Assembly: GCF_003086295.3 (NCBI RefSeq)
Contig: NC_092040.1
Coordinates: forward strand, 2,914,001 to 2,978,000
Direction of reading: 5' to 3'
Length of the DNA: 64,000 bases
Source of the DNA: Arachis hypogaea
Lineage: Eukaryota > Streptophyta > Magnoliopsida > Fabales > Fabaceae
Each line of letters starts with the position of its first letter. Positions within the stretch are counted from its first letter, which is position 1. The translations under genes and the position numbers were made by a program. Shown here in pieces: positions 14,859 through 56,929 of the stretch. The notes under the pieces were generated by a model, which was not told where the DNA came from, searched no databases, and worked only from the letters and a program-made list of their open reading frames with translations.

Positions 14859-14859
<1 letters not shown>

Positions 14860-14910
<51 letters not shown>
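14860..14910. repeat. (TTA)n microsatellite
   Basis: About 17 uninterrupted TTA/ATT units. Confidence 0.95.
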
Positions 14911-17900
14911 CTTTGTTGACATATTAGTTTCGGTCACTTATTAATATATGCTAAATGTCATTGAAATATAAACTTAGCCGAAAAGTATATATAAATTGAA
15001 AAACTGGAAAAATACGGATAAAGATCTAATTTTTTTTAGATTTATTTTTAATATATAATTATTATTCATGTATTTTTATCTAATCTTTTAAAGATTTTAA
15101 AAAATAATTTATAATATAATATTAAAATTTTAATTTTCTTACAATAAAAAATAAATTTAAATTTAAGTTTTTATTACTCATTTTTTAAAAATAAAAATAA
15201 AATTTTTTTATTACAAGACGAATTTCTTGACAAGATAAGCCTGTATATGTATTTGCTCAGAATACATGCACACAAAAGTATAGTATATATCTTATCTATG
15301 AAGTATGAGCCAAACATATATATTTGATTATTAATATTTTTTTAATTATAAATTTATATAAAAATGGTACAAATTAAAAAATAGTACTTTAATTTACACG
15401 AGGTATGAATCAAATTATTATATATGTTGATGTTACCTTTCATGTAAGTAAGCACATATCAGATCAGAAATAAAAGAGCGATATAAATAGAGATAGATTG
15501 ACTGTCATATTATCCTGCAACTTACCTGTTACAAAAATAAATACATAGTAATCTAAAAATAAATAATATTATTTTATAAAATTATACATAGGTATGTTCT
15601 ATGCATATAACTAGAGTATTACTAAGAGAAATGTATCACTTGAAAATATACTTGTTAAATAAGAATTTATAGATATGCTCTGTGCATGCACGTAGTTACA
15701 TAACTGGAGTATTATCAAGAGAGACCAATATATATATAATAAGTTCTTACAAATATTACTTTTAAAAAGATTCTTATTTCTTGAATAGCTAAATCAGAAC
15801 AAAGATATAAAGCTTATATAATGAATTTGATATGAACAAAATCTTAAAAAAATTAAACAATATTCATATAAAAATAGAGAAGAAAAATAAACTGATATAA
15901 ACTAAAGTAAATTTGAATAGCTGAATGTATATTGTAGAGCTGAATTACTTTATACACGGACACATCTAAATTGTTATAATATTAAATTATTTTAAAATAT
16001 TGCATCACAGCTTATTTCAATAATATCTTAAATGCTTATATTAATAAAAATGTGCTTCGTTTTCAGCTTGGCCCCTCAACGCAAAATTTCTGACTTTGGT
16101 TTTGAATAAGATTCAAGTTAGCTTACACGTATTTTAGTTAACCAGTGAATTAACAGCTAAGTACCATTAACACGAGTTTCCTTCTTTAGTTGCAGTGCCG
16201 TATTGTTTCAATAATATTTGTTTTTTTCTTTGATTTATGATAGTGTATATTAAGAAAAGTATAATACATTACAGAACTACTTCAAAATTGAATTGCAGCT
16301 AGTTACATGCATTTTAAATAGAACAAATTTTGATCCATCTTAGAATTGATGTTTTGACCTTAAATTACATATATAGTATTGTCGGAAAATATCTTTCTTA
16401 GTGACGAAAATATATTTTGGTCTTTGCTGATTACAATTTTATTTTATTTTTAATTTTTTTTTGTCACAACAACTTAAGGAATTACGTTTTATTATAGACC
16501 AATGAATAAAAATGATGGTTAAAAGTAAATTAACATATTATTCCTTTTGATTGAGCAAGGTGAGTCTAAAATTGAGAATAATTGTAGGATTAATCATACG
16601 AGCGAATCTTGTTACTTATTATCGAAAAATTAAAATACTTACAAATTTTAAATGTTTTTATTAAAAAATATTAAGTGATTATTATTTTTTTTATTTTTAT
16701 CTTATATTTAAGTTAACAATGCAATAATTAGTTTTTTATTTTTTACATTAAAAATATTGATTTTCTAGTCTTTATTTATTATATTTCTTTTAATTATTTG
16801 TGTTAAATTAAAATAATATAATAATTATAATTTTTTATTTTTATATATTATTATTATTATTATTTTGTCTCTGTTAAGAGACAAATTCTGGTCATTTACC
16901 GATGACATGTGTTAAATGTCATTGAAATATGAACCTGGACTAAAAGTATAGATAAGTTAAGAAATTAGAAAAGTACGGATAAAGATAACAGAAATAGATT
17001 TTGAGTCACTTATTGACATGTGCTAAATGCCATTAAAATATGAATCTAGACTGAAAACATATATAAACTGACAAATTAAAGAAACACAGATAAGAATTTA
17101 ATTTTTCTCAAATTTATTTATTTATTTATAATATATAATTATTATTTATTTTTTATTTAATTTTTTAAAATTTAAAATAAGTAATTTATAATATAGTATT
17201 GAAATTTTAATTTTCTTATAATAAAAACTAAATTTAAATTTTTATTACTCATTTTTTTAAAATAAAAATAAATTTTTTTTATTACAAGCCGAATTTCTTG
17301 ACAATATAGGCATGTATATGTATTTGCTCTAAATACATACTCACTAAAGTAGTATATGATATTGATATCTTGTCTATGAAGTAAGAACCAAACATATATT
17401 ATATATATTTGATTATTAATAATTTATTTTTTTAAGAATTATAAATTTATATAAAAATGGTACAAAAAATAGTACTTTAATTTATACTATGTATGAATTA
17501 AATTATTATATATATTGATATTATCTTTTATGTAAGTAAGCACATACAGATTAGAAATAACAAAATGACACAAATAAAAAGAGATTAAATAAATTTTTAT
17601 CATATATTATCCTATAATTTACCTACAAAAATAAATACATAGTAATCTAGAAGTAAATAATACTATTTTATAAAATTATACATAATAACATAGAAGTATA
17701 TCTGTTGAATAGGAATTCATAAGTATGTTCTATATATGCATACATCTACTTACATAATTAAAGTATTACCAAGAGAAATACCACTTGAAAATATATATAC
17801 CTGTTGAATAAAGATTTATAGGAATGGTTTGTTTAGAAACCTTTTGTGTTAAGTATAGATATGTCTTAAAATTTTAAAATGTGTCAGAATTTTATTGTTA

Positions 17901-18246
17901 ATTTTATTTGAGACCAATATATATAATAAGTTCTCAAAAATATTACTTTTAAAAAAGATTCTTATTTTTTGAGTAGCTAAATCAGGAAAAAAAATAAGGC
18001 TTATAAGTTATAATTTATTTGATATGAACAAAATCTTAAAAAGAATATTCATATAAAAATAGAGAAGAAAAATAAACTGATATAAACTAAAGTAAATTTG
18101 AATAGCTGAATGTACATTGTATAGCTGAATTACTTTATACACGAACACAATTATATTCTAAATTGTTATGACATTAAATTATTTAAAAATATTGCTTCAA
18201 TTCACAGCTTATTTCAATAATATCTTAAATATTTATAATAATAAAA

Positions 18247-20357: not shown

Positions 20358-22020
20358 CTATCTATCCAACACTAATGACCAAGGAATCTTACAAATATCT
20401 CTGTCAATCAGAACTTTCACAATATGTTTGCAAGGAATTTTAAATGACTCCATTCTTAAACAAGAACACGTGAAGATCATTCTTTCTTGACGAAATTCAA
20501 CCATCCACAAAAAATTGGGCCTCCTATGCTTACGCACAATGTACTTTGAGCAATTATCGTTATTCTCTATGTTTAGCACCTGCATTGATCTAGCTCTAGA
20601 AAAAAATGACTAAAATAATAGAAATATCTCATAAGTGTATACCTCGACAACAAATCTTTCTAGCATCTTTATATAAGTCTGCATCACAGACACCCCACAT
20701 GTAGATACATGATCAACATTAATTTCTTTAAAGCGCAAGTGTGCAACACACTTTTGAAAATGCTCTACAAAACTTGTCAAATCTTACCGCAACCCTACAT
20801 ACTTTGACACAACTGAGTGTAAACCTTCACATCTTGAGATAGTTCTAAAATCAGCAAAAAACTTACCTTTTATATATGCAGTAGTCCATATATGCTTCTC
20901 TTCATACATGCTTTTCACCCAAGACTTATCCTCAACGCCAAATTTTTCAATTAGTTGAACCCACTTATGCTTAAACACGAAAATCTCGTAGTCTTCCAAC
21001 ATGATTTTTCTAAATTTAGATGTAAATCATGGATTTTCAATATTACTAGACACATTTCGAATAAGGTGTTTAGAGCATAATCTATGTCTGGCATCAAAAA
21101 ATACATCTCTTACTACATTCCTAATCGCCATGGTCCCATAAGGTATTATTGAGATCAGGGTCTTACCCTTCATTGCAAACATGAGTTGACGCAAAAGTCA
21201 AATATATATATTAATAGTTTCGTCCATAATTAATGTGACAGCAAAAATAATTATTTGGTTGTGGTGGTTAATCCCGCTGAATATGACTAATTGACAACTA
21301 TATTTGTTCTTTTTGTATGTGACATCAAAATCAATAACATTCTCGAAGAGTTGGTAGTTTAGTTGACTAATCCCATCATACCAGAACAAGTTACGTAACA
21401 AACCTCTTGAATCATGACATGCCTTGAAATATAATTGTGGATCCTTTAAACGCATATCCTCCAACTTCTTCAACACCTGCATCACTAGGAACTTGACGCC
21501 TTTGTCGAGCAATTTCATTCTACACATCTCTAGGACCATAACCAACAAATTCATACCTGCCTACTTAACTAACCAGAAGATCAAATATTTGTGAAGTGCT
21601 AATCCCAGACTTCAACATGTTCATCATTTGCATAATATCTATCTCTGACATTTTTCTATGGATAGACAACATAGCACTGAATTGTGTATCCAATAGATCA
21701 TGGTTGTGTTCGTCAGAGAAATAAAAAATATGCTACCTTTGAGTTTCAAGTATAAATTTAACTTCCATTCAGACTTCACACTCAGTTCTTGTTTTTAATC
21801 CAAACTCCTTCTTCCTATTTTTCATCATATAATACTTTTTTTTCCTAAACCTTTGCTGATGATATAAAAACTTTTATTTGTAAATATCGCCAAGCGTATG
21901 AAGGTCATGGGATAAATCATCATAACTTATATGTACCATCTTTGCCAAGTCACGCTACTTAGCCACCGACATCCAAGTTACCCAGCGAGCAGTATAAGTT
22001 GATTCACAATTAAGTCCACA
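20358..22020 (-). pseudogene. Decayed FAR1/FHY3-family (MULE) transposase
   Basis: Read on the minus strand, conserved FAR1-family blocks appear in the right order but in pieces broken by stops and frameshifts. At about 21550-21900 there is the end of a FAR1-type DNA-binding region (FSDEHNHDLLD). At 21198-21554 lies the transposase core (LFWYDGISQLNYQLFENV, then FDVTYKKNKYSCQLVIFSG, holding the first catalytic Asp). At about 21003-21197 follows KGKTLISIIPYGTMAIRN and later RHRLCSKHLIRN. At 20784-21002 the core continues. At 20358-20585 is a SWIM zinc finger (CSCLRMESFKIPCKH). In active relatives the second block normally reads TDGD.AM, so the second catalytic Asp is lost here. I read this as a dead transposon gene rather than a domesticated FRS gene, because no frame is open across the domains. 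Confidence 0.85.
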
Positions 22021-31950: not shown

Positions 31951-32349
31951 ATGACAACAATTTTTACTATGACCCTCTCAAGTCCTACTAGAGTAATTGC
32001 CAAGGGAGTACAGACGCCTCTAAAGACTCAAACAATCAAGTTTTCACCCATATTCAAGCTCAACAAGAGGTGGCCTGGTTTAATTGGGTCGGGCCGATCA
32101 TCTTCGATCCAACCTGTTCGTGCAGCCCCGGATAAAATATCAGAAAAGGTAGAGAAGAGCATAAAGGATGCCGAGGAGAGCTGCACCGATAACCCGACCA
32201 GCAATGAGTGTGCAGTTGCTTGGGATGAGGTAGAGGAGCTGAGCGCGGCGGCGAGTCATGCGAGAGACAAAAAGAAAGATTCGGACCCGCTTGAGAATTA
32301 CTGCAAGGATAATCTAGAAACTGATGAGTGCCGCACCTATGATAATTGA
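31951..32349 (+). CDS. CP12: Calvin cycle protein CP12, chloroplastic
   Basis: A small, largely disordered chloroplast stroma protein that in the dark, when its cysteines are oxidised, binds GAPDH and then phosphoribulokinase and holds both inactive. The 132-residue product has an N-terminal transit peptide rich in Ser/Thr/Lys (about residues 1-57). The mature protein has both redox pairs (C78/C87 and C118/C127), the core motif AWDEVEEL (90-97) and the C-terminal GAPDH-binding tail ENYCKDNLETDECRTYDN. The length fits the family (about 124-134 residues). It is a single intronless exon, as expected. Which paralogue (CP12-1/2/3) it is cannot be decided here, but the tail is of the canonical CP12-1/2 type. 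Confidence 0.96.
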   Translation: MTTIFTMTLSSPTRVIAKGVQTPLKTQTIKFSPIFKLNKRWPGLIGSGRSSSIQPVRAAPDKISEKVEKSIKDAEESCTDNPTSNECAVAWDEVEELSAAASHARDKKKDSDPLENYCKDNLETDECRTYDN

Positions 32350-36901: not shown

Positions 36902-39593
36902 CTACTTCTTGGGATATAAGGTTATGGGTAACCCATTTTTGGGCATGGCAAAAGGACCATATTGAATCCCATTCTTTGCACCTAAAACAGACCACCTACA
37001 AATAATGACAAAAACAAATCACATTTTAGGAACATTGTAAACACATACTTGTTATTATTATTGAAAAGATGTTACTAGTAATAAAATTAATTTTTTTTTT
37101 AAATTACCAACCTGTACTTTGTGGTGAGATGATGTAGAAGCACCAAGATCTCTAACTTGGCCAATTCATTCCCAGGACACATGTGGATCCCACTGCCAAA
37201 TGGCATAAAGGTATTGGCTTTTGGAGAAACCTGGCAAAATAATAATAAAAAAAGAAATCTTTTTATGGTCTGTAAAAAATAAAAAATAATAACAATATAA
37301 AATGTGGTAGGTAATTGAGTATTGATAATGCAATATTACCTCAAATCTTGAAGGATCAAACTTCTCTGGTTCTTTGAAATGATTAGGGCTATGGTGTATG
37401 TTTCTGAAGAGTGGTAACACTTTCCAACCTTTTGGTATAAGATACCCTGAAGGAAAATAATTCCAAACAAAGAATCTGTTAGTCTAAAATTATAAAAATG
37501 GAAAAGAAAAAAGAAAAAGAAAAAAAAGGGTATTGACCTTGATATTCCACATCTTCAACTGCTTCTCTAAAAGTAAAAGACAAAATAGATGCAACTCTTA
37601 GAGTCTCTTGTATGACCCTTGAAGTTATTGGCATCTTCTTGGTATCTTCCCAATTCAGACCCTTCTCATCACCACTTTCTTCCTTTCTCTTCACTATGGA
37701 CTCTTGCTCCTCCTGTAAACCCCACACAAAAATTAAAAACCAAAACTAAATAAATTTATAAAGAGTAAGATGGATGATTTTTTTTATCCCAATTAATTTT
37801 GAGATTCATGTTTTCATAAATTCTCTTAATTTTTTTCCATAATTTTGTATCTTATAAGATCTTTGCACAGATAATATTAAGGAGACAAAAAAACAGTCCG
37901 AATTTATTTTATTTAGTATTTATTAATTATCGCAATAATTAATAAATATTAAATAAGACAAGTTATAACTATTTTTTTACTGATTTTCTTTAGTTACCAA
38001 AAATTTTTCACTATAATAATGAAATCTTTTTTCTTTTTGGTTTTTACCAATTTGAAGATCCTTTCTCTTATAACCAATGATACTTCTACTTGAGTAGGAT
38101 AATTGGAAAAAGAAAACATGTAGATAGGGTAAGAAAGTTGCATCTTGCATGGATATGATATAAAAGAGTGGGACCCAAGAAAGAAGAACACTTACTGTGA
38201 CAGCTTGAAGGACAGTGGGATTTTCACCAAGGTACTTCACAATCCACGTCAGCACAGTAGCTGTGGTATCACGAGCTGCAAAAATAACTCCAATTATGTT
38301 ATCTGTTATTTGCTCGTCGGTGAGTCCAGCCTTCTCCTCCATGAATGAACCAAGCAAGTCTTTGTGTTCTTTCTTCTTCTCTCTCCTATTCAATATTATC
38401 TCACCCACGATCTTCGCTATTTCCTTCCTTGCTTTCATTGCTTTGTTGAACAGCGTCCCTGGAAGGTTAATTGGCATTGAATTGTACCCTTTTTCGAGTT
38501 TGTAGTAGCACCGTTTTAGATCCTCTCTGTAGTGGATTTCGTCCTTGCCGAAGATTGAAAGCAGAGCAACGTTGAAGGTGTACTGCAATCAATCATAAAG
38601 AAAAAAAATTTAATTTTGATGAATACCCATTGTTTCTTTTGCTCTAAAGCTTAGAACTTTACAAGAAATTAGGAAAGAGAATAGCTCTTGATCCCACTTT
38701 TTGGTTACAAACCAAAAGCACTCTTAAGAGAGAGAAAGAGGGAACATGATAATGATGGTTTTCTATGAATTTTGTGAATTTTTTTTTTTATTTTTCAAGG
38801 AATCTCACGATACCAGCAAAATTCGAACCCTGGGCACTTGTTTGGCACTTGTTTGGCACGAACAAGTGGATTCGAGAATTTGGTGTTTAATGTCAACAAA
38901 ACATGACTTTTAGAGAAACAGGGGAAACAGAGGAACTCTGTTTTTTTGGTAACAGAGGAATGAAGTGAAGTGAGTGGTACTTACTGTTTTCATTTCAAGG
39001 AAAGTAGTGATCAAACGTCCTTGGCAAGAGGTGAGGGAATGTTGGGCAATGGATTCAATGTCGGTTATGATGTTTTTGATGGCTTCAGGCATGACGGTTC
39101 GAAGAACAAGCCTCCTCAAGTTAGCATGGTACTCTCCTTGATGGAAGAAAATTGCTTGCTTCCCTAACATCCTCTCTTTGCTCGCCGGGAACGTTGGCTT
39201 GAACAATTGAGCTTTGTTTAGAACAAATTTCGCTGCCTCTGGGCTCGAAATCATAACACATGGACACCCCAAAATGTTGGACTTGAACATAGAACCATAC
39301 CTATTATCATAAACAAATATATGTTTTAGGTTAACAACTTCACATGCAAGTAACTATAAACTAGTACTAGTGTTGTGTTAATAAGGAATGAACCTTTTGA
39401 TTTTGTCGGCAAAGAAAACATTTGGGTCTTGAGAATACATTTGAAAAGTTTCACCTATGTATGGCCAACCCATGGAGCCAGGTGGGAGTGGCAAGTATCT
39501 TCGTTTGGAAGCAAAATAGGGTTTCATGAAGATTCTAAATAGAACAATGGAGAGCAAAGAAGCCAAGATGCATAACATGGTACTTAGTTCCAT
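36902..39593 (-). CDS. CYP707A: Abscisic acid 8'-hydroxylase (cytochrome P450 CYP707A), complete
   Basis: ER-bound P450 that hydroxylates abscisic acid at C-8', the committed step of its breakdown to phaseic acid. Exons on the minus strand, in order: 39593-39394, 39300-38985, 38582-38196, 37712-37538, 37446-37340, 37230-37112, 36995-36902. All introns are GT-AG and the joined frame is open for 465 residues, the usual length. Visible landmarks: N-terminal membrane anchor (about 4-22), LPLPPGS hinge, [17 protein letters not shown]-helix AARDTT (274-279), ExxR as ETLR (337-340), PSRF, and heme loop [11 protein letters not shown] with the Cys ligand at 413. The last exon starts at the upstream acceptor TTTGTAG, because only that keeps the frame into [17 protein letters not shown]. 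No lesion is seen. Subclade (A1 to A4) not decided. Confidence 0.95.
37881..37998. mobile_element. Small palindromic MITE-like element in CYP707A intron 3 (family 3, copy 2)
   Basis: GTATTTATTAATTATCGCAA is followed by AATTAATAAATATTAAATAA, matching the element at 13990-14120. It lies wholly between exon 3 (ends 38196) and exon 4 (starts 37712). Confidence 0.5.
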
Positions 39594-44894: not shown

Positions 44895-46915
44895 ATATTC
44901 AGAAAAGTATAATAGATTATAAGAATTTTAAAATTGAATTGCAGCTAGTTACATGCATTTTAAACTGAACAAATTTTGATCCATCTTAGAATTGATGTTT
45001 TGACTTTAAATTACATATATAGTATTGTAGGAGGATAGTCCTTAATAATAAAAATATCTTTAATAATAACTGATTTTATTTTATTCTTTAATTCTTTATT
45101 ATAAGAAGATGGTTAAAAATATATTAATGTATTACTCTTTCTGATCGAATAAAGTGAGTCTAAAATTGAGAATAATTATAGGATTAGTCATGTGAATCTT
45201 TTTACTTATATATTATCAACAAGTTAAAATACTTTTAAAAAAATTTAAACGTGTTTTAATTAAAAAAATATTAAGTGATTATTATTTTTTATTTTTATTT
45301 TATATTTAAGTTAACAATAATTAATTTTTTATTTTTTGCATTAAAATATTGATTCTCTAGTTTTTATTTATTTATTATATTTTTTAGTTATTTGTGTTAA
45401 ATTAAAATATTATAATAATTACAACTTTTTTAATTTTTATAAATTATAATTATTATTTTGTCTCTGTTAAGAGACAAATTCTGATCATTCAAAATATAAA
45501 TTTAAAAATTCATCTTGATATTTTACACTTTTACATGCTGCACATGACATATACACGTGACGAAATTGATGACATACTACGTGTCAATATCAATTTAAGG
45601 TGACATACTGAATAACTAACAGAAATTTTAAAATGAAGTAAGATGATAATTTAACTCTGAGAATGATTATGATAGTAAATAGAATGGAAAACCTAGTAAA
45701 ATTCAACAGCACTATTTGACCAAGTTTATCTGCAATAAATCAAGATATGAACAATTAATTTTTTTAAATTGCTTATGCTGTGGTGGATTCAGAATGACTT
45801 GGACAACTATAAGATATATGGTTGAAACTTCATTAATAACTTTTAATTTGGATAACTAAAAATACATTTGCAGATTCTAGTAGCTTCAAACTTATTTTGT
45901 ATCACTCTTAGAGGTTGCAGACCAAAAAAACAGATCCACAATTGACTTGGAATACATACATAATAAGAATGATTTTATATAAGTAAGTGAACATATAAAT
46001 GGAAAAGAAAAAAGAGTGAAATTCAGTTCTATATGTTTTCAATGAGTATGAATAATATGAGCACGGTAAGAGAGGTGCTTGTATATATAAACAACACATT
46101 ATCAATTAATTATAACATAAACTAATTAAAGAGATTTAACTCTAGTTATATAAAAGACTAAAATACTTTCTGTACATATAAATAACCTTTTCTTAAGGAT
46201 TATAAATTTATATAAAAATGGCACAAAAAATAATACTTTAATTTACACTAGCTATGAATCAAATTATTATATATGTTAGATGTTATCTTGTGTATCATCT
46301 TATCCTGCAGTTTATCTACAGAAATATATAAAAGTAAATAATACTATTTGTGTGAATAGAAATTTATACTATCCTGCCAATACAATTCCTTCATGTTTTG
46401 AGGTCCATAAATCATTTGAAGAATAACAATCCACTCCAATGATGTCCACCTGACAAAGACAGAGATAAGGGCTAGAGTCATGTAAATCAAATAGTAGTAA
46501 ATATGCAACATTGACCCAAGACAAGTACCTCTCCTCTCCCAACTGGAAATACTATAACCACATGATAAATAATTTTTACTTTTTACCTCTATACACACAC
46601 TTATATGTCAGCAGTTTTTATCTTTTACGGATACAAATAATCATCTTGATGTATTAAAAGTTAGTACTTACATAAATAGAATATTATCAGAGTGTCTAAA
46701 TTTTATTGTTAATTTTAGTTGAGAACAATATATATAATAAGTTTTCACAAATATTACTTTTAAAAGAATTCTTGTTTCTTGAATAGCTAAATCAGAACAA
46801 AGATATGAGGCTTATAATGAATTTGATATGAACAAAAATATAAAAATTGAGAAGAAAAATAAAGTGATATAAACTAAAGTAAATTTAAATAGCTGAATGT
46901 ACATTGTATTGTATT
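44895..46915. repeat. Partial fourth copy of the 13-18 kb composite repeat, left of the virus
   Basis: 44935-45487 matches 16280-16888 (GTTACATGCATTTTAAA, TTGTCTCTGTTAAGAGACAA). The second copy of the 400-bp repeat lies at 45505-45905. 45990-46190 matches 14205-14345. 46190-46290 matches the B block. 46680-46915 matches 17850-18120 (TAGCTGAATGTACATTGTAT). No gene. Confidence 0.6.
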
Positions 46916-47037
46916 GAAAAGTTATTAGCCTACTTGAAATGACAGAACATTATTTATAACTACAATCATTCTTAACAAACTAAATATAAAAGCCAAGTCT
47001 CTGGTGGCTATGGCTATGGTAACTAGTGGTGGCTAAG

Positions 47038-47064
47038 GTTACACTTTTAATTTAAAAGTGTAAC
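47038..47064. repeat. Perfect 13-bp palindrome at the left edge of the viral insert
   Basis: GTTACACTTTTAA and its complement are separated by one base. MITE/MULE-like phrases (TGGCTATGGTAACTAG, AAAGCGTCACC) surround it, and related ones occur just right of the viral DNA at 54226-54285. Confidence 0.7.
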
Positions 47065-47089
47065 TTTTCATAAAGAAAAGCGTCACCTA

Positions 47090-47509
47090 ATGGAAAAAAG
47101 TAAATTAGAAGATTTAAGAGAAGAAATAATTAAGTTATCAAAATTAATAGATCAAAAATTAATGATTTTAACTAATGTCAACTGTAATGACACCGAATTC
47201 TTAAAATCAATACAAAATGATTTTTCTCAAAATCTTTATTTTACTATAAGTTTTATTGAAGGACTTCAAAAACCTGAAAAAACTTATTTTTCACATGGAA
47301 TTTCTAAAAAATGTTACCATGGAAATGATTCCCCACATCTATATCATACTTTTAACCCACAATTAAATTCTATAGTAGATATGCTTGAAGAAATATTAAC
47401 ATCCATAAAATTTCAAAGAAATAAGGAAAAAGAGAATCCCAAGGAAGAAAATTTCCAAAACATAATTAACATAACAGATTTAAAAGTAAAACCACCACTA
47501 AAATTATGA
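47090..47509 (+). CDS. Viral small ORF upstream of coat protein (139 aa), possibly virion-associated protein
   Basis: Open for 139 residues. The charged N-terminal third has heptad-like spacing (LEDLREEIIKLSKLIDQKL) compatible with a coiled coil, and the tail is Lys/Glu-rich and ends with prolines (KVKPPLKL). Its stop overlaps the coat protein start by 4 nt (ATGA). In caulimoviruses the ORF directly before the coat protein encodes the virion-associated protein, a coiled-coil protein of about this size. Position and composition fit, but I see no diagnostic motif, so this is a placement guess. Confidence 0.5.
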   Translation: MEKSKLEDLREEIIKLSKLIDQKLMILTNVNCNDTEFLKSIQNDFSQNLYFTISFIEGLQKPEKTYFSHGISKKCYHGNDSPHLYHTFNPQLNSIVDMLEEILTSIKFQRNKEKENPKEENFQNIINITDLKVKPPLKL

Positions 47510-48855
47510 ATATTGAAGAAAAATTAGAAGAAGTTACAATGCTTTTTAAACAATTAAAAATGGCTCAAGAAAATAATATTATGGAACATGGGTTTCAAAT
47601 AGAGGAAGAATTAGTAAATTCTGAAAATATAGAAAATGAAGAACACATTCTAGATTATTCAAGTGACGAAGAACCAGCTATTCCAATACAAGTAAAAAAT
47701 GAAGCTGGAACATCTAAGGATAATCAATCTCAATTTAAATGGGAAACAGGTTTTGATAATTATGCTTTTAAAAAAGGGTTTATAAATAAAGATTCAAAAT
47801 ATGCAAAAATACCATCAAAATACGTTCCTAAAATCCAAGAAATGGAAGGAGAAAGAATGCTCGATTTAGACTGCAAAAAGAACGAAAAAGAAATTTTCGA
47901 AAACTGGTTGAATTCCTTCTTATTAGAAGCCTTTACTAATCCAAAACTTGGTGAATTGTCTGGAAGGGACATTTGGAATTACATAGGGTTTCACACTAAA
48001 TGAACTATAAGAGATTATATGACATCAATAGAAAACCAAATAATAGAAGAATTAGAAACAAAAACAACAGCTTATGATAAGATATTATATATAATGATGA
48101 TTCTATATAAAGAATTTTTTGGAAAAAATATTATAGATCATAGACAAGAAGTCTATAATAAAGAATATCAAGAAGCAAAAAACCATTTAGCTAATATTCA
48201 GATATATGATTTATGTAATGTGGAGTCCTATATATGTGAATATAGAATACATTATTACAAACTAAAAGAAGAAGATAAAAATCATTATCTTAGTATGTAC
48301 ATAACAAAACTTCCATATCCTGCTAATGAATTTATAATGGGAAGATTTATAAGAAAAATAAATAGAGGAACAATTGAAAATAATTTTGGTGGAGCAACCT
48401 CTGTTATAAGAGAGGAAATAAAAGAACGTTGTATGCAAGAAGCAACTCAAAAAAGATTTGCAAATATAATCAGAATTTGCTGTCAGGATAATGAGGAGAT
48501 ACCTCAAAAATATGGTCTTAATAAAAATCTTCAAAGAAAAAGAAAATATCAATTTAGAAGAAGAAAATACTATCCAAACTGGAGAAAAAAGAGATATTTT
48601 AGAAAAGAAAATAACAATAGAAACAAAAGACAAAGAAATAACTATTGCCCAAATAAAAAAGAAAATTGTAAATGTTGGTATTGCCAAGAAGAAGGACACT
48701 ACGCAAATGAATGCCCGAAAAAGAAGGATAAAAAGGATCTTACTAAACAAATAGAAATTGCTAAATCTTGTTTCATGGAACCATTAGAAGAATCTGATGA
48801 TAACTTAGACTATATTTTTGAATATGTCTCGGAAACAGACTCAGAGACTGAGTAA
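47506..48855 (+). pseudogene. Viral coat protein ORF, interrupted by one in-frame stop
   Basis: 450 codons in one frame, with a TGA at 48001-48003 (codon 166) splitting it. The front part is acidic (DYSSDEEPAIPI), the middle holds the capsid-like core, then comes a strongly Arg/Lys-rich stretch (about codons 345-385) and a retroviral-type zinc knuckle CWYCQEEGHYANEC (390-403). An acidic C terminus follows. This acidic-core-basic-CCHC-acidic layout is the caulimovirid coat protein pattern. No other lesion is visible. A downstream ATG at 48019 would only give the C-terminal part. Confidence 0.88.
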
Positions 48856-50815
48856 TAATGCTACATTTATTACTATAAAAATAACAGAAAAGTTTATAAA
48901 TGCTTTTATAGATTCTGGGGCAACAGAATGCTTTGCTAGTTCAAGTATAAAACTTGATTGGAAAAAATTAAAGAAACCATTAAAAGTTAGAATAGCTGAC
49001 AAATCAATACATAAAATTGACCAAAAAGCAGAGATGGTTGAAATTTTTATTCAAAATTATAGGTTCATTGTTCCATCTATATATATGTTAGATTCTGGAA
49101 TGGATTTTATCATAGGAAATAACTTTTTAAAGCTATATCATCCATTCATTCAAGAATTAACATATATAGTTTTAAAAGCTCCACACGATTCTTTAATAAA
49201 TCAAAAATCAAAACGTATAAAAATACCAACTACTACTATAGATAAGATCTTAAAGTTTAAAATATTTTCTATATTAGAAACATGTTATTTAAATCTATAC
49301 TTTCAGATAAATATTCCAAAAAATAATCTTGAAATAAAGATAGAAGAACTCTTGGATGAAATTTGTGCTGAAAATCCTTTAGATATTAAAAATACAAATA
49401 ACGAATTAGTAAGCATTAAATTAAAAGATCCCACAAAAGAGATAAATGTTCCAAATAAAATTCCTTATTCCGCGAGAGATAGAGAAGAGTTCTCATTAGA
49501 GTGTAAAGATCTTTTGGAAAAAGGAATTATAAGATTAAGTAAAAGTCCTCATGCGGCTCCAGCTTTTTACGTTGAAAACAATAATGAAATTAAAAGGGGA
49601 AAACGAAGAATGGTAATAAACTATAAGAAAATGAATGAAGCAACTATTGGTGATGCTCATAAACTTCCAAGAAAAGATTCTATTTTAGAAAAAATCAAAG
49701 GAGCAACTTGGTTTTCATCTCTTGATGCAAAATCAGGATATTGGCAACTTCGTTTAGACGAAGAAACAAAGAAATTAACTGCTTTTACTTGCCCGACAAA
49801 GGAATCAACAAGTGTGTTGCTTTATGAATGGAATGTATTACCATTCGGATTAAAGCAAGCCCCAGGTATTTATCAAATATTTATGGAAGAAAATCTAAAA
49901 GAGTTAAATGAATTTGTTCTAGTATACATTGATGATATACTAATTTTTACAAAACAGGATAAAGAAGATCATCTTCAAAAATTATTAATAGTTTTAGAAA
50001 GATGCAAGGAAAAAGGATTAGTTCTTAGTAAAAAGAAAGCAAGAATAGCAAAACAAGAAATAGAGTTCCTTGGATTAATTCTATCTACTCAAGGAAAGCT
50101 AAAACTTCAACCAAATGTTCTAGAAAAGGTAAATTTATTTCCTAATAAAATAGAAGATAGAAAACAATTACAAAGATTTTTAGGGTGTATAAATTATATT
50201 TCTGATCAGGGATTTTTAAAGAATATAACAGAATACACTAAAAGCCTATTTCCAAAAATAAGTACTAAAAAAGTATGGAAATGGGATGAAAAAGATAGCA
50301 TACAAATTCAAAGAATTAAAGAATTATGTGAAAAACTTCCAGAACTTTATATTCCAGAAGAAAATGACTACTTAATAGTAGAAACAGATGCTTCAGACAT
50401 AACCTGGTCAGGATGTCTAAAAGCTAAGAAAGCTATAAAAAGTTTGGAACAAGAAAAAGAATCACTAGATTCTAAATATCCCCCAAAGGAATTACTTTGC
50501 AGGTATATTTCAGGGACTTTTACTCCAACAGAACAGAGATATACTACTCATGAAAGGGAAACTCTAGCAGCAATTAAATCTCTTAAGAAATGGAAAATTG
50601 ATTTACTACCCAAAGAATTTACATTAAGGACAGATTCAAGTTATTTAACAGGTTTCATACGATATAATTTAAAAGTTGATTATAATCATGGACGATTGGT
50701 AAGATGGCAATTATTTTTATTACAATATCCAATAAAAATTGAATATATTAAGGGTGACAAAAATGTTATTGCAGATACATTAACAAAAGAATGGAGTTCG
50801 TCTACAACGCATTAA
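48818..50815 (+). CDS. Viral polyprotein: aspartic protease, reverse transcriptase, RNase H (665 aa, open)
   Basis: Uninterrupted for 665 codons, the usual size for this ORF. In order: aspartic protease active site DSGA (32-35); an RT domain with LDAKSGYWQL, PFGLKQAP and the catalytic YIDD (about 370-373); an RNase H domain with ETDAS (catalytic Asp about 524) and TDSSYL. It overlaps the coat protein ORF by 38 nt and the next ORF by 25 nt. No stop or frameshift is seen; whether every catalytic residue is intact would need an alignment. Presence of RNase H and absence of integrase separate it from a Ty3 element. Confidence 0.95.
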   Translation: MNMSRKQTQRLSNNATFITIKITEKFINAFIDSGATECFASSSIKLDWKKLKKPLKVRIADKSIHKIDQKAEMVEIFIQNYRFIVPSIYMLDSGMDFIIGNNFLKLYHPFIQELTYIVLKAPHDSLINQKSKRIKIPTTTIDKILKFKIFSILETCYLNLYFQINIPKNNLEIKIEELLDEICAENPLDIKNTNNELVSIKLKDPTKEINVPNKIPYSARDREEFSLECKDLLEKGIIRLSKSPHAAPAFYVENNNEIKRGKRRMVINYKKMNEATIGDAHKLPRKDSILEKIKGATWFSSLDAKSGYWQLRLDEETKKLTAFTCPTKESTSVLLYEWNVLPFGLKQAPGIYQIFMEENLKELNEFVLVYIDDILIFTKQDKEDHLQKLLIVLERCKEKGLVLSKKKARIAKQEIEFLGLILSTQGKLKLQPNVLEKVNLFPNKIEDRKQLQRFLGCINYISDQGFLKNITEYTKSLFPKISTKKVWKWDEKDSIQIQRIKELCEKLPELYIPEENDYLIVETDASDITWSGCLKAKKAIKSLEQEKESLDSKYPPKELLCRYISGTFTPTEQRYTTHERETLAAIKSLKKWKIDLLPKEFTLRTDSSYLTGFIRYNLKVDYNHGRLVRWQLFLLQYPIKIEYIKGDKNVIADTLTKEWSSSTTH

Positions 50816-52143
50816 ATCAAAAAATTCAAAAATACGAACAAGAACTCGAAAAATGCAAGCATTGTCAGCAAATAAGGACACAGATCCAATCCCTCAAGAA
50901 GGTCATTGAAGCAATGAAATCAACACAACAACCAAAACCATCAGAGTTCAGCCAGCTAAGCGTGGTGGACAAATCAGGTGAGGAAAAAATTCCAGAAAAT
51001 AAAACAATTGCTGAAATTATCAAAAAATCCACCCAAGATAAAAAATATTATGTAATTTATAATGGCCCCATGAAAGGAGTATATGATGCCTGGGAAAAAG
51101 CAGCACCATTTACATAGCAATCAAGGATAATTCATAAAGGAGGGTTTTTAACACTGGAAGAGGCAAAGGAATCTTTTAGAGAATATGAAGCTCTTCATCC
51201 AGAGCAAACCCTAAAAAGAGCAGATAAAGCTCCAATTCAAACCCAGAGAACAGGGATAATAAGAAACATTCCTACAAGGGCTGAAATCAAGGAAAAGAAA
51301 AGGGTTTGTAGATCAAATCTCAGAGAAACCCTTAACATAGTCTTGAATTGGACTGCAGAAAAAAGGGCGATCTTGGGATATTATCCTATTGCCAAAGAAC
51401 AGCTAACAAAGCTGGTTATATTTCCAGAGGCTTCCCCATCTGACACCTATCAGTTTTTCCAGTATGGATTAATTGATACAATCTTAATTTTTAATGATTT
51501 GAAAATTATTAGTGAGTTTCCTGCAGGATTTATTGATGCAGTAAAAAGATTTAAAAATATGATTGACAACGTAAATCCAAGGGATATATCCCTAAAATTT
51601 ACGAATAGTCAACCTATTTTTAATGAAGAAGAAGAATGCTTGGTTCCAGCACATCAAGTGATCTTCATGTCCGTCTTCCCAGGAAATTTTCAACCAATTG
51701 ATCAAGTTCAAGATTTAACAATCTACAATCATGAAGGAAGACTAGCCAGCACACTAGCAAGGGTCTTCGAAAGAACTCAAAAGATAACAAGGGAATCTCA
51801 CACAAGAATCAATTATAAAAGCAGAAATACTTTGCTTGTGTCCAGTAAAAGGAATGAAATTGAAGAAAGAGAGATGAGACTCTTAGTAGAATTTGAATCA
51901 GCATTCTACAACTTATCTGGACTCTTAGAAAAGCTCCCCGAAGGGATAAAGAGGAATCTCTGCTATTTGATAAAAGACAGAGAAGACCACAAGTGCCAGC
52001 TATGTGTCTCAGAGTTATCTGAAGAAAGCAATAATAAAACGGAATCAACCCACATGATAAAGGAAGAAGACAACGCATCTGAAGGTCACATGATGAAAGA
52101 GGAGGACAGCACATCTGAAGCATCTCTCAACATTATTGCATAG
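50791..52143 (+). pseudogene. Viral transactivator/inclusion body protein ORF, interrupted by one in-frame stop
   Basis: 451 codons in one frame, with a TAG at 51115-51117 (codon 109). Before the stop it has a coiled-coil-like start and the segment YYVIYNGPMKGVYDAWEKA, which resembles the RNase H1-like N-terminal fold found in this protein family. After the stop the frame is open to 52143. Near the C terminus a roughly 14-residue segment is duplicated (HMIKEEDNASEG and HMMKEEDSTSEA). The protein family lets ribosomes reinitiate on the polycistronic viral RNA and forms inclusion bodies. Confidence 0.85.
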
Positions 52144-52300
52144 TGACGTAAGCGCTTAGGTCATAGAGCACCAACAATGTAGCTGGTGCAAGATAATAAA
52201 CAATGACGTAAGCAATGACGTCATAAGAAGGGTAAGGATGGGAATTGTCCATCAGACCCAACCATTATAAATAGGTTGCTTAGGCAATTGTAGAAGGCAT
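52144..52300 (+). promoter_or_regulatory. 35S-like viral promoter
   Basis: Between the transactivator and movement protein ORFs. Three TGACGT motifs (52144, 52204, 52216; as-1-like, bound by TGA-type bZIP factors) precede a TATA box TATAAATA at 52266-52273 by 50-120 bp. An expected start site is near 52297. Position and motif set match the full-length-RNA promoter of caulimovirids. Confidence 0.8.
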
Positions 52301-52484
52301 CAAACAATAGAAAGCAGGAGGCTAAGAGTACTCATATGCTAGGAGAGCAAGGAGGAAGCGGCCGAGGCGATTCTATAGTTTGAAGAAGAATTCCCTTAGG
52401 AAAAACCAATTCTAAACTCCCCTCTGGAGTTAGTATCTACAATCTCCCTTCTGGAGATAAAAACATCTTATGTAAAATATTCTA

Positions 52485-52490
52485 AATAAA
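52485..52490 (+). terminator. Viral poly(A) signal
   Basis: AATAAA about 190 nt downstream of the predicted start of the full-length RNA. Caulimovirids use a signal at this distance, passed once and used on the second round, to give terminally redundant RNA. Confidence 0.6.
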
Positions 52491-52537
52491 GGAAGTTTTT
52501 CTCCAGAAAGGTACGCCTTTATCTTAATCTCATAGTT

Positions 52538-53455
52538 ATGAATTATTTAGAAAGTCTAGAATTAACGGAAGAATCTGATTATTATAGACTATCTGCCTTA
52601 TTAGATAATGAAAAACAAGTTGTTCTAAAAACAGAATTAAATCTCAAATCAAATGAAAATTTTAATAAACAAAATCTTTTAAAAGAAGTTTTTAATAGAA
52701 AAAATATAATATACTATGGAAAAATTCAACTTGAAGCCCCTATAAAGATAAAATCTGCTAATGGAGAACTTGAAATAGCTCTGATAAATGATGAAGAATT
52801 GAGTAAACAGATTGAGAAAATTAAGGATCAACAAAAAAGATCTAAAATTGGATGGATTCATATTAGTACTATACAAGTCTTAATCAAATCCACATACATG
52901 AAAGGAATTAATTCACCAATAAGCTTAGCAATCTGTGACAAAAGAATTACTGATGACCCAATAGATCAAATAATTGGAATTGTTCATGGAAACTTGGCAA
53001 ACGTAAATGTTAAATTCAATGCCCATCTTGGATATGCTATACCTTTATCAACTGAAAATCTTGGAAGATCTATAAGTTTGGCTTATAAATTTCACAGAAA
53101 GAATCTAATGGAACAAGACGATGAACCATTTTCAATTACATATGCAATAAATTATGCTTTAACAAATAGCCATCATAGTATAATATTTAAAAACAGAGAA
53201 AGAATTTATGTCGATGAATTATTTCAGAAAATTGTAAAAACAGAAATACCAAAATATAAAGCTATTGAAAACCCAGTTCTTTTACTAAAAGAACCATCAG
53301 AAAAATTAGTTTCATCGAATTTTCAAATAAGAGAATCCAAAATTAATAGCCCTTTAAGTTTATCTAAGTTAAAGATTAAAGAAGAAAATTCTGAAATAAA
53401 AGAATTAACAAAAAAGGTCGAAAAATTAAATGACACCCTAAACACTAAGTTATGA
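52538..53455 (+). CDS. Viral movement protein (30K superfamily), 305 aa, open
   Basis: Uninterrupted ORF directly after the promoter/leader, the place of the caulimovirid movement protein. The central region (IGWIHISTIQVLIKSTYMKG, then SPISLAICDKRI, then GNLANVNVKFNAHLGYAIPL) has the beta-rich pattern and conserved Asp region of the 30K superfamily that widens plasmodesmata. The C terminus is a charged coiled-coil-like segment. Length is close to relatives. Its stop overlaps the next ORF by 4 nt. Confidence 0.85.
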   Translation: MNYLESLELTEESDYYRLSALLDNEKQVVLKTELNLKSNENFNKQNLLKEVFNRKNIIYYGKIQLEAPIKIKSANGELEIALINDEELSKQIEKIKDQQKRSKIGWIHISTIQVLIKSTYMKGINSPISLAICDKRITDDPIDQIIGIVHGNLANVNVKFNAHLGYAIPLSTENLGRSISLAYKFHRKNLMEQDDEPFSITYAINYALTNSHHSIIFKNRERIYVDELFQKIVKTEIPKYKAIENPVLLLKEPSEKLVSSNFQIRESKINSPLSLSKLKIKEENSEIKELTKKVEKLNDTLNTKL

Positions 53456-53688
53456 CAATAAATAAAGAGAAAATATATGTAACCTATCAAGACAAGAAAC
53501 AAGAGCTCTTTGAAAGAAAAAATCGGTTGAATTATTTACAGTTTTCTGAAATAAATCAAAGAGCATTTGAAACTCTAAAAATAATCTATGACAAATTAAA
53601 AGGAGAAGTTGAAGTGTTAGAAAAATTAATAGAATCTCTAGAAAATAATGATGAATCGATGATAGAATTTGCAGAAATTCTAAGATAA
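53452..53688 (+). CDS. Viral small ORF, 78 aa, unknown
   Basis: Starts within the ATGA overlap with the movement protein stop. Hydrophilic, Glu/Lys-rich, with heptad-like Leu/Ile spacing in the second half (LKGEVEVLEKLIESLE). No motif recognised. The tight coupling suggests translation by reinitiation. Confidence 0.6.
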   Translation: MTINKEKIYVTYQDKKQELFERKNRLNYLQFSEINQRAFETLKIIYDKLKGEVEVLEKLIESLENNDESMIEFAEILR

Positions 53689-53691
53689 CTA

Positions 53692-53884
53692 ATGAAGTAT
53701 ACAAAGATTGAAAGACCAAAAAATAAAATAAAAAGAAAAAGGGCGAAAAAAATTAAAAAGTAAAATAAAGGAATATAAAAGAGAATTAAATAATCTTCAA
53801 TTCGAAATTAATGACCTTATAATAAAAAGGATAGAAATAAGAACGAATATAAACAAGTTGGAGCTAAACTTAAAAAATTTATAA
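53692..53884 (+). pseudogene. Viral small ORF broken by a frameshift
   Basis: Begins 3 nt after the previous stop. The ATG frame stops after 23 codons at 53761-53763, while the next frame stays open from there to TAA at 53882-53884 with similar Lys/Asn/Ile-rich composition. A one-base change in an A-rich run near 53750 explains this. Function unknown. Confidence 0.5.
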
Positions 53885-54112
53885 ATGCCTGGAACACCAT
53901 ATTATGATTTAAAAGAATTAAAGCTGTTAAAAGAAAAAATGGAGAATGAAATTGAAAAATTAAACAGATATTTAAAAACAGGAGAAAGTGAAGAAATAAA
54001 AGAAGTTATTGAGGATTTGAGAAATTATATTAAAGAAAAAGACAAACGGATAAAAGATTTTATATACAATAATCCATGCAAAAAAGAATATTATAAACTA
54101 AAACAAGATTGA
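53885..54112 (+). CDS. Viral small ORF, 75 aa, coiled-coil-like
   Basis: Its ATG directly follows the preceding TAA. The product is Glu/Lys-rich with regular Leu/Ile spacing (LKELKLLKEKMENEIEKL), predicted coiled coil by eye. No motif recognised. Confidence 0.55.
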   Translation: MPGTPYYDLKELKLLKEKMENEIEKLNRYLKTGESEEIKEVIEDLRNYIKEKDKRIKDFIYNNPCKKEYYKLKQD

Positions 54113-54118
54113 AAAATT

Positions 54119-54220
54119 ATGGTCAATACTTTTTATAAAGCACCTATACAAATAGAAATTTCGAAAAAGAAATTAAAAGAAAAATTCAAATTAAAATTTT
54201 TGGTATCAGAGCCAAGTTAA
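54119..54220 (+). CDS. Viral mini-ORF containing the primer-binding site (33 aa)
   Basis: Starts 6 nt after the previous stop and ends at TAA 54218-54220. The tRNA primer-binding site is embedded in its last codons. Soymoviruses, as I recall, have an ORF around this site. It may be a truncated piece of a longer ORF cut at the integration boundary. Confidence 0.4.
   Translation: MVNTFYKAPIQIEISKKKLKEKFKLKFLVSEPS
54201..54213 (+). promoter_or_regulatory. tRNA-Met primer-binding site of the viral genome
   Basis: TGGTATCAGAGCC is complementary to the 3' end of plant initiator tRNA-Met and is the minus-strand DNA start (nucleotide 1) in caulimovirid genomes. It lies at the extreme right end of the recognisable viral DNA. 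Confidence 0.9.
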
Positions 54221-56929
54221 CGATTAAGGGTAACACTTTCTTTTTAAGCAACACTTTTAGTGATACGCTTTCAGTTACCAAATGTCCACAACTAATTGGT
54301 AAACTCCTTTATAGTCACCATAGGTACAATAAGATGATAGGTACCATAGAAGGCACCAAATATAAACTAAATTTCGTTAACTATTTTACAAGAGTTTTTT
54401 GTAACACACGTTTCTGAAAATTCTTTGAATCAAGTTTTAGCCGTAGCTATATTTTCCTTGACCCCTTAAACTAAGTGAAGAACTAGAAATCACCTTCAGT
54501 TTGGTTTTAAACCTATCAAAGAGGTGCAAAGACAATGAAATGTGACATATAACCTTCTTTTATTTATTTAATCTCTCACAAATTGCAAGTTAAGCTCAAA
54601 ATACATACTATGTTTGAGTTGGTGCCAACGCCTTGACCAAAATCTGCATCAGCAAAGTCAGTGGATTTAAAAAATATTGATTGTATCTTTAACATATCTC
54701 AATATTCTCTTCATATATTGACACACTTTGTTGACTAAACACTGCAGGGTTTCATCTAAGTAGAAAGTAGAGCTCAAATTTCGGATTAATCATTCTATTT
54801 CATCTGATTTAGATAATTACTCTTGCATTATTCATCAAACAGTTAGTACTAGTAATTTAAAACGCATTTGACTTTAATTTCTCTAGTTCATTAATTGATG
54901 TCGAAAAAGTCAACCCCTGTGGTCCATATGGATCCTTCTTTCTCTACTTTGTATAAAAGAGTATTAATTATTTAAGAAACCTTGTTTAACACTCTCTATT
55001 AATTAAGACAAGCCACGTAATTTGAACATCAATATTACATATCTAGAATACTATTAATTAAGTTAGCTGAAACATACATCTCCATGTTCTAACTATATAC
55101 TCATAAATTACAATAAAATATTTCAGTATCTTATTATGATTTTACTTTCTACTATTGTCAAACATAAAAATAGACGTGCCTTGTGAAACCATGTTCTTGA
55201 TTTGGTACTTATTGATTAATTTTTAAATTATACTCCACCTTATTATTGGAGTGACGAACGGGTCGAAACCTTGCCGTGCAAGCCACTGAACTAGAGGCAG
55301 AGAACACCTTAGAAATTAAACTAACGCTAACAGAGTAGAAAGCGTTTCAACCAATATTTATCTCATATAACAACTCATCAAAGGACGGGTCCAACTTCAA
55401 AATTGAGTCTAACCAAAATAAATTGAGTCACCTTATATTGGGGCAATACATGAAAAATTAGGCCCTCGTGTTTAAAAAAAGAAGGAAAAAATATTCTAGA
55501 AGCTTTTGTTTTTATATTTAATAAAAAAAATACTTAAACTCTCAATCCATAGTTTAGGTAGGTTTATGTTCTTTACTTCTTTCATTTTTCTCTCTTTGTG
55601 ATATTGGTTTTGTTTATACAATTACCACTTCCCTTCTTGTTTAATTTCTTTTGGTAGGAAAACAAGTTAAGAGAAACATTTTTGATGAGTTTGAAACGGT
55701 TAAAAAGTTTTGAACATAAAATATATGTCATATCAAACCAATTTAAATATAATTAGTCCACTACAGTACTGAACTCCATTTAAGAGTCTATCATTGGTTA
55801 ATAAGTTGTTGCATGCATAAAGTAGAATTCAAACCCCCAACATTTATTTAAGCAAACTAGTGAACTAACTATTAGATCAACTCAACTCGGTTAATAATGA
55901 ATTTTAACTAAATCCATGAAATTGAAAGATGGTATGGCATTTGGCATGTTGTCCATGGTTGGGCCTATAGTGGGCACGTCCGCATGCGCACAACCTTATA
56001 CTTTATTTACAATTAAAAAAGTTTAATAGAAATTCAAAAAGAGAAAATAGATATTAACACTAGATGACAGCGACGCTACAATATTCACTTTTTCATGGAA
56101 TTTTTTAGAATCTCAAATTTTCAGTGTGGAGTGTGGACACTGGACAGTGCATAACACCAAGAAGTAAACAAATATAAATGAATAAAATTGTGTTAGAAAG
56201 TGTATTGTTGTCCCTCCCCTTACGTTGGATAGAAGTGGTCCAAATTAAATGGAGATAATTAATTAGTAGGTTCCAATTTAATTAAAGCTTCCATAAAATG
56301 GTTAATGGCCTTAAAGCTACCTAACTGTCGCAGTTACGTGATGCCTTATGCTAATATGTTGCTAACGCACTTGTTACAAAAATATTTAATTTAAATTTTT
56401 TATATAATAAGAATAATAATCCATATAGAAAATTTGGGTAATTTAATTTAAGTTTTGATTTTTTATCCTTTTTTATATTTCAATAATGAAAATGATATAT
56501 ATGGTCGCGGGTGCACCATGACCTTGTTTTGTGAGATTGCATTATAACCTCAACCTATTTTTAACAATTTGAGTTTAATTAGAGAATAATTATTTTTTGG
56601 CCAAGATCAATATAGTTAATCTCAAATCATATGCCAAGTGAATTTACAGACTAAATTTCGGGATAGAAATCATAAAAATCAGGTATGTATGGTTTTTAGA
56701 TATTTTGTTAATTGATTATCGATAGAATTTTTTTTAATAGAATCATAATTTAACTTGCTTTAGTGAGATGAAATGAGGATTGGTTATGTCATAAAATAAA
56801 AAATAAATTACTGTTAAATTTATAATTTCACAATAAATTTTACTAGCTTGGACTAAAGATACATTTGATATTTATATTGGTCCATAAAATTATATTTGTA
56901 TCTTAATTTAGTTGTAAAAATTTTAATTT
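54221..56929. other. Gene-free DNA right of the viral insert
   Basis: Starts with MITE-like phrases (GGTAACACTTTC, AAGCAACACTTTTAGTGATA, 54226-54285). A phrase at about 55790-55890 (TTGGTTAATAAGTTGTTGCA ... GAACTAACTATTAGATC) recurs at about 60572-60660. No gene is recognised. Confidence 0.55.

What the first reader, a model, noticed from the sequence alone, without database searches (positions are those of the whole stretch)
47090..54213. Near genome-length endogenous pararetrovirus with the complete caulimovirid gene set
All recognisable modules of one circular virus genome are present on one strand with native overlaps, and about 7.1 kb shows only three visible inactivating changes. Most plant endogenous pararetroviruses are fragmentary or rearranged; this one is colinear. 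The small-ORF cluster and primer-site position point to a soymovirus-like lineage, which could be an undescribed member.
Basis: partly seen in the sequence, partly recalled or inferred. Interest (0 to 1): 0.88.

Follow-up and report, generated by a model that had tools for sequence, protein, structure and literature searches.

The report
Fossil soymovirus in Arachis plant DNA
A peanut-genus plant carries a nearly whole, lightly damaged copy of a plant DNA virus in its own chromosome; it is a well-preserved example of a kind of viral fossil already known from plants, including peanuts.

Summary
About 7.1 kb (near 47,090 to near 54,213, + strand) is one colinear caulimovirid genome in host DNA: a 139-aa ORF, coat protein, protease-RT-RNase H (668 codons open), transactivator, 35S-like promoter region, movement protein, small ORFs and an exact tRNA-Met primer site. 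In-frame stops break the coat-protein and transactivator genes; a frameshift probably breaks a small ORF. The RT-RNase H tree puts it in the soymovirus clade (support 100), sister to Cestrum yellow leaf curling virus (100), at 66.7% amino-acid identity. Neither has ORF VII. It is by inference a separate species. The host is an Arachis species: its CP12 matches A. duranensis at 127 of 132 residues. A published survey lists 391 RT domains of an Arachis-only 'Soymovirus-01'; this is very probably one copy, though sequences could not be compared. It is a good new member of a known kind. The right end lies at or near the primer site, which suggests, without proving, capture of viral DNA opened at its minus-strand nick. 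Sister copies could not be examined.

The parts
46000..46909 (.). Host DNA left of the element with pieces of a dispersed host repeat
   Evidence: 46692-46909 matches 17881-18122 and 15730-15936 of the same window at 81-82%; further pieces of 46000-46300 match 12477-17527
46910..47089 (.). Unassigned stretch that should hold the left junction; includes a palindrome of two 16-nt arms (47035-47067)
   Evidence: No second copy in the window apart from its own palindrome; composition does not fix the border; a frame is open from 47051
47090..47509 (+). 139-aa ORF just upstream of CP, no Pfam family above cut-off; viral by its overlap with CP and its codon-position composition
   Evidence: ATG 47090, stop 47507-47509, overlaps CP start 47506; its stop-to-stop frame of 152 codons exceeds the longest of 500 shuffles, 133
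47506..48855 (+). Coat protein gene, broken by one in-frame stop (48001-48003); coat domain and CX2CX4HX4C zinc finger lie after the stop
   Evidence: Two open pieces in one frame, 47470-48003 and 48004-48855; zf-CCHC 2e-05 and Caulimovir_coat_dom 7.6e-05 on the second piece
48824..50815 (+). Polymerase: aspartic protease, reverse transcriptase, RNase H; open over its whole length (663 aa from the first ATG)
   Evidence: Pfam; alignment; tree
50791..52143 (+). Transactivator (TAV, ORF VI) gene, broken by one in-frame stop (51115-51117) inside the Cauli_VI domain
   Evidence: Two open pieces in one frame; Cauli_VI E 0.0021 on profile positions 1-20 of 44 just before the stop
52144..52537 (+). 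Intergenic region: TGACG(T/A) motifs at 52144, 52204, 52216, TATA box at 52266, AATAAA at 52195 and 52485; putative 35S-like promoter, leader and polyadenylation signal
   Evidence: leader folding not unusual
52538..53455 (+). Movement protein, 305 aa, open
   Evidence: Pfam MP 2.1e-39; homologues
53452..53688 (+). Small ORF, 78 aa, its start overlaps the MP stop
   Evidence: no Pfam family above cut-off
53692..53884 (+). Small ORF, probably frameshifted: opens in one frame with a stop at 53761, while the open stretch that ends at 53882-53884 is in another frame
   Evidence: inferred
53885..54112 (+). Small ORF, 75 aa
   Evidence: no Pfam family above cut-off
54119..54220 (+). Short open frame (33 codons) that contains the primer site and ends near the right border
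54201..54212 (+). tRNA-Met primer binding site, exact 12 nt, the last recognisable viral feature
   Evidence: right border by three composition models 54,190-54,236

Best explanation
This is an endogenous soymovirus. Shown: a unit-length or nearly unit-length genome of a caulimovirid that is sister to Cestrum yellow leaf curling virus lies in a contig of an Arachis species. Inferred: viral DNA opened at or near the minus-strand discontinuity beside the primer site was captured by host end-joining repair (these viruses have no integration step of their own), was inherited, and then gathered a few lesions. It is now a defective relic. The coat-protein and transactivator genes are broken; and because the promoter lies inside a single copy, a transcript from it would read the movement protein, small ORFs and primer site and then run out into host DNA, so it could not make a full-length terminally redundant RNA. 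At most it could give partial transcripts or small RNAs.
For: Gene order and domains. RT-RNase H tree of the window plus 48 of the 120 hits listed: soymovirus clade 100, sister to CYLCV 100. MP agrees: the best named virus is CYLCV at 42%. No ORF VII here or in CYLCV. Primer site at or near the right border. Host repeat on the left. Arachis CP12 gene in the same window. A pol cluster of 70 sequences and an MP cluster of 57, whose representatives are each 98% identical to this element over 85% and 95% of the query, host unstated. Published Arachis-only soymovirus cluster.
Against: The left junction is not fixed: composition models put it inside the first ORF or leave it open. No empty site or second copy could be examined, because the genome search was unanswered nine times. 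The element is shorter than the listed soymoviruses (7,535-8,303 bp). Opening at the nick and end joining are not shown: the 8-nt match between the end zones was reached by 163 of 2000 shuffles, so there is no microhomology evidence. CP and transactivator were not placed by trees.
Confidence: 0.93

Rival explanations
1. An assembly join: episomal virus DNA from an infected plant was assembled into the host contig.
For: Pol and MP frames are open and the genome is colinear. Near-identical proteins come from short contigs of unstated origin.
Against: In-frame stops in two essential genes and a probable frameshift are not expected of an infecting virus. Soymovirus RTs are published as multi-copy in Arachis genomes.
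Confidence: 0.04
2. A Ty3/gypsy-type retrotransposon or another LTR element that only resembles a pararetrovirus.
For: Pol matches four Ty3-like proteins (my label, from their integrase-type Pfam domains) at 30-32%.
Against: No direct repeats at the ends; no integrase family in any ORF scanned; movement protein and transactivator domains present; tree.
Confidence: 0.005
3. A variant of the best explanation, not exclusive of it: the copy lost several hundred bases at the left end or in the leader, so it is near-complete by gene count only.
For: 7.1 kb against 8,253 bp for CYLCV and 7,535-8,303 bp for the soymoviruses in one table. From the assumed transcription start to the MP start is only 244 nt, and it does not fold unusually well. 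The left border is not fixed.
Against: MP stop to CP start adds up to about 1.17-1.21 kb here if the left end is at 47,060-47,090, between about 1.05 kb in WCSV-1 and about 1.35 kb in hibiscus soymovirus (my sums). CYLCV also lacks ORF VII, so its absence need not be a deletion.
Confidence: 0.35

Closest known systems
Cestrum yellow leaf curling virus (genus Soymovirus)
   Same: Sister in the RT-RNase H tree with support 100; best named virus for pol (62% over 97% of the query) and MP (42%); no ORF VII
   Different: 66.7% identical in RT-RNase H; 8,253 bp against about 7.1 kb; known as an episomal virus; its small ORFs, CP and transactivator were not compared
'Soymovirus-01' endogenous RT cluster of Arachis (PMC9794742; passages and section 9 seen)
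   Same: Soymovirus RT domains with open frames, 391 sequences, 3 species, genus Arachis only
   Different: The parts I saw describe RT domains, not the genome of this cluster; sequences are in supplements that I could not open, so identity with this element is inferred
Peanut chlorotic streak virus (soymovirus; host from its name)
   Same: Same genus
   Different: 50.9% identical in RT-RNase H and in another branch of the genus: the fossil is not an integrated copy of this virus
Endogenous florendoviruses, and infectious endogenous viruses of banana, petunia and tobacco
   Same: Caulimovirid DNA in plant chromosomes, with end-joining capture proposed (PMC4241990 and PMC10377300, passages)
   Different: Other genera; the infectious ones described are tandem arrays (petunia) or rearranged (banana), whereas this is a single broken copy

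Membership tests
Caulimoviridae | MP, CP, and a polymerase with aspartic protease, RT and RNase H1, without integrase | tested here: met
   Pfam hits on separate ORFs; no integrase family among hits up to E 1. The coat-domain hit is below its curated cut-off; the zinc knuckle is above it
Caulimoviridae | tRNA-Met primer binding site TGGTATCAGAGC | tested here: met
   Exact at 54201-54212; motif as given in PMC6482551
Caulimoviridae | Circular dsDNA genome of 7.1-9.8 kb with strand discontinuities | not testable with these tools
   Length about 7.1 kb is at the lower limit; circular form and nicks need viral DNA
Soymovirus | RT-RNase H falls in the soymovirus clade | tested here: met
   Clade support 100; sister to CYLCV 100
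Soymovirus | Seven or eight separate ORFs, with small ORFs between MP and CP and the primer site in that stretch | tested here: met
   MP, three small ORFs (one probably broken), 139-aa ORF, CP, pol, TAV = eight, plus a short frame over the primer site (definition)
Soymovirus | ORF VII between the intergenic region and MP | tested here: not met
   MP starts 53 nt after the start of the second AATAAA and no frame of 60 codons lies on the + strand between 52,144 and MP. Not a strict criterion: CYLCV, a member, lacks it too
Soymovirus | Isometric virions; episomal infection | not testable with these tools
   Genomic relic only
New soymovirus species | Less than 80% nucleotide identity in RT-RNase H to any named species | tested here: inconclusive
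   Amino-acid identity is at most 66.7% to a named virus in the tree, which implies it, but nucleotide sequences of the named viruses were not at hand; threshold
Soymovirus-01 cluster of Arachis | At least 60% RT identity to the published cluster | not tested
Ty3/gypsy (Metaviridae) | LTRs, integrase, RT among Ty3-like elements | tested here: not met
   No terminal repeats, no integrase, tree

The most novel reading that the evidence does not exclude
The element records how this lineage enters chromosomes: viral DNA is opened at its minus-strand discontinuity beside the primer site and joined end to end as a whole unit, so that the many near-identical copies would share this end and form a young natural series of integrations of one CYLCV-like soymovirus in Arachis, some copies of which may still be intact.
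Probability: 0.2. Interest if true: 0.5.

Novelty: new member of a known kind. Interest (0 to 1): 0.3.

Why it matters
It gives a genome organisation to a lineage that the papers I saw report only as RT domains in Arachis, and it shows that peanut relatives were once infected by a CYLCV-like soymovirus that is not the known peanut soymovirus. Endogenous copies matter in practice: they can confuse virus tests (recalled) and their small RNAs may act against related viruses (discussed in PMC10377300, passage). A near-unit-length copy with one end at or near the primer site makes a simple model of integration testable across sister copies.

Tried and rejected
Ty3/gypsy origin: rejected by gene content and tree. 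Microhomology at the ends: 8 nt shared, reached by 163 of 2000 shuffles, not supported. The two flanks as halves of one inverted-repeat transposon: direct comparison reached by 82 of 500 shuffles, inverted by 11 of 500; suggestive at most, not used. Sharp borders from base composition: 40-nt bins are noisy, with A excess also in a host bin and T excess in a bin inside the element; models agree on the right border only. Extended leader hairpin: z -1.32, 20 of 200 shuffles as good, from a transcription start that I assumed. Methylation decay: CpG observed/expected 0.39 in the element, 0.48 on the left, 0.75 on the right; descriptive only, since the starting value is unknown. Whether the window or its 98% relative is more decayed: 11 differences in 571 residues, 2 where only the window departs from CYLCV, 3 where only the relative does, 6 unresolved; nothing to conclude. 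Relatives in the viral contig collection: none for MP or for the pol alignment. Rfam and tRNA scans of the window: nothing. NCBIfam: nothing of use. Right flank 54.4-64 kb: no Pfam family in 10 of the 14 frames listed. Papers on the genome of an Arachis endogenous soymovirus: the listings and the passages that I opened showed only the RT survey and repeat counts; most listed papers were not opened and the library holds open-licence papers only.
Full report
What is there. From near 47,090 to near 54,213 on the + strand the window holds one colinear caulimovirid genome. Stop-to-stop frames, Pfam scans of each frame as it stands and start codons give, from left to right: an ORF of 139 aa (47,090-47,509) with no Pfam family; the coat-protein gene (47,506-48,855) with a zinc knuckle and the caulimovirus coat domain; the polymerase gene (48,824-50,815; stop-to-stop frame of 668 codons) with caulimovirus protease, reverse transcriptase and RNase H; the transactivator gene (50,791-52,143); an intergenic region; the movement-protein gene (52,538-53,455); a 78-aa ORF (53,452-53,688); a probably frameshifted small ORF (53,692-53,884); a 75-aa ORF (53,885-54,112); and an exact 12-nt tRNA-Met primer site (54,201-54,212) inside a short open frame that ends at 54,220. 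Neighbouring genes overlap by 4, 32, 25 and 4 nt. In 500 mononucleotide shuffles of the element, three forward frames, no open frame exceeded 133 codons, so this is not chance.

Lesions. The coat-protein frame has one in-frame stop at 48,001-48,003, upstream of the coat domain and zinc finger. The transactivator frame has one at 51,115-51,117, inside the Cauli_VI domain. Between 53,692 and 53,884 the open frame changes, which fits a small insertion or deletion, but there is no relative to confirm it. Polymerase and movement protein are open. The residues that I take, from recall, as the catalytic ones of RT (D306, D375, D376) and RNase H (D527, E584, D609, D656) sit in invariant columns of a 19-sequence alignment; the protease aspartate D35 is in a nearly invariant one.

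Regulatory region. Between the transactivator stop and the movement protein lie three TGACG motifs, a TATA box at 52,266 and AATAAA at 52,195 and 52,485. This is what a 35S-type promoter with a terminally redundant pregenomic RNA would show. A start near 52,297 and a redundancy of about 200 nt are my inference; the family range is 35-270 nt (PMC7660458, whole text). The leader so defined folds little better than shuffles (z -1.32, 20 of 200 as good).

What it is. An iqtree2 tree (LG+G4, 1000 ultrafast bootstraps) of 460 RT-RNase H columns, from the window plus 48 sequences that I chose from the 120 hits listed, places the element in a clade of all sampled soymoviruses with support 100, and as sister to Cestrum yellow leaf curling virus with support 100. 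Identities in that region: CYLCV 66.7%, SbCMV 62.0%, Malva soymovirus 61.3%, BRRV 56.3%, PCSV 50.9%, caulimoviruses 43-48%, four Ty3-like proteins 30-32%. Several branch points among the other soymoviruses are weak (70 and below), which does not touch the placement. The movement protein agrees: after two unnamed relatives (98% and 60%) the next hit by E-value is CYLCV at 42%. An independent character also agrees: in the soymovirus table of PMC6482551 only CYLCV has no ORF VII (table and footnote); here the movement protein starts 53 nt after the start of the second AATAAA. CP and transactivator were not placed by trees.

Host. A CP12 gene at 31,951-32,346 encodes a protein identical to A. duranensis CP12 at 127 of 132 residues; the next named hits are 81% (A. 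hypogaea, presumably a paralogue) and 73% (Stylosanthes), among 646 hits, 120 listed. The host is thus an Arachis species, not further determined. The left flank up to 46,909 holds pieces of a dispersed host repeat. With 16 protein queries (nine of the element's own, seven of relatives) no other caulimovirid piece was found in the window at E up to 0.01.

Borders and integration. Three composition models (order 0, 1 and 2) put the right border at 54,236, 54,216 and 54,190, with everything from 54,087 to 54,395 within 2 nats; so the end is at or near the primer site, to within tens of bases. For the left border the same models give 47,387, 47,387 and 47,258 (range 46,762-47,428), inside the 139-aa ORF. 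I still count that ORF as viral, because its 152-codon frame exceeds all shuffles, its codon-position composition is like that of the other viral genes and its end overlaps the CP start; but this is a result against a clean left border. The primer site marks the priming of minus-strand DNA, where caulimovirids have a discontinuity, and their replication has no integration phase. The simplest reading is that DNA opened at this nick was captured by end joining, the mechanism proposed for endogenous caulimovirids in general (PMC4241990 and PMC10377300, passages). This is inference from one copy; no microhomology above chance was found.

What it can still do. The promoter lies inside the single copy, so a transcript from it would cover the movement protein, small ORFs and primer site and then leave the element; coat protein, polymerase and transactivator lie upstream of it. 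With two essential genes broken as well, this copy should not give rise to virus by itself. This is inference from the anatomy.

Completeness. The element is about 7.1 kb; the soymoviruses in the table of PMC6482551, with WCSV-1 itself, are 7,535-8,303 bp. Missing ORF VII explains part of the difference. MP stop to CP start comes to about 1.17-1.21 kb here if the left end is at 47,060-47,090, against about 1.05 kb in WCSV-1 and 1.35 kb in hibiscus soymovirus, so no large loss is needed there; but a deletion at the left end or in the leader cannot be excluded. 'Near genome-length' is the right wording.

How new. PMC9794742 (passages, section 9) reports a cluster 'Soymovirus-01' with 391 open RT domains in three species, genus Arachis only. 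PMC6189423 counts pararetroviral repeats in A. ipaensis (716 + 5,386) and A. duranensis (413 + 1,695) (passage). Clusters whose representatives are 98% identical to this pol and MP hold 70 and 57 sequences of unstated host. So this is very probably one copy of a published multi-copy Arachis lineage. In the listings, and the passages I opened, I saw no description of its genome; these cover open-licence papers only. Verdict: a real, well-preserved new member of a known kind.

Limits. The window's genome could not be searched: nine requests were unanswered. Copy number, ends of sister copies, empty sites and transcription are untested.

Noticed in passing
window 31951-32346 (+): CP12 gene (Calvin cycle regulator) in one open frame, used here to name the host genus.
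   Followed up: yes
window 37980-39353 (-): Exon pieces of a cytochrome P450 gene (Pfam p450; nearest solved structure by sequence for one piece is CYP90B1). It looks to me like the CYP707A (abscisic acid 8'-hydroxylase) group, which is recalled, not tested. It lies about 7.7 kb from the viral element.
   Followed up: partly
window 2917-3969 (+): A 350-codon open frame with no Pfam family that resembles the C-terminal part of a plant AP-4 epsilon adaptor subunit (recalled, not tested).
   Followed up: no
window 21201-21560 (-): Fragment of a MULE transposase (Pfam 5.5e-09).
   Followed up: no
window 46000-46909 and 12477-18122: A dispersed host repeat family with several pieces (81-93% alike) on the left of the element; its class was not determined.
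   Followed up: partly
window 52051-52120: Nearly two tandem copies (1.9, 82% matches) of a 36-nt unit near the 3' end of the transactivator gene, a local in-frame duplication.
   Followed up: no
window 47053-47087 and 54229-54259: Similar inverted stretches on the two sides of the element, reminiscent of transposon ends; similarity reached by 11 of 500 shuffles.
   Followed up: partly
protein hits: Linum perenne carries a large family of caulimovirid movement-protein genes: 106 of the 120 listed hits (165 in all), 37-44% identical to this one.
   Followed up: no
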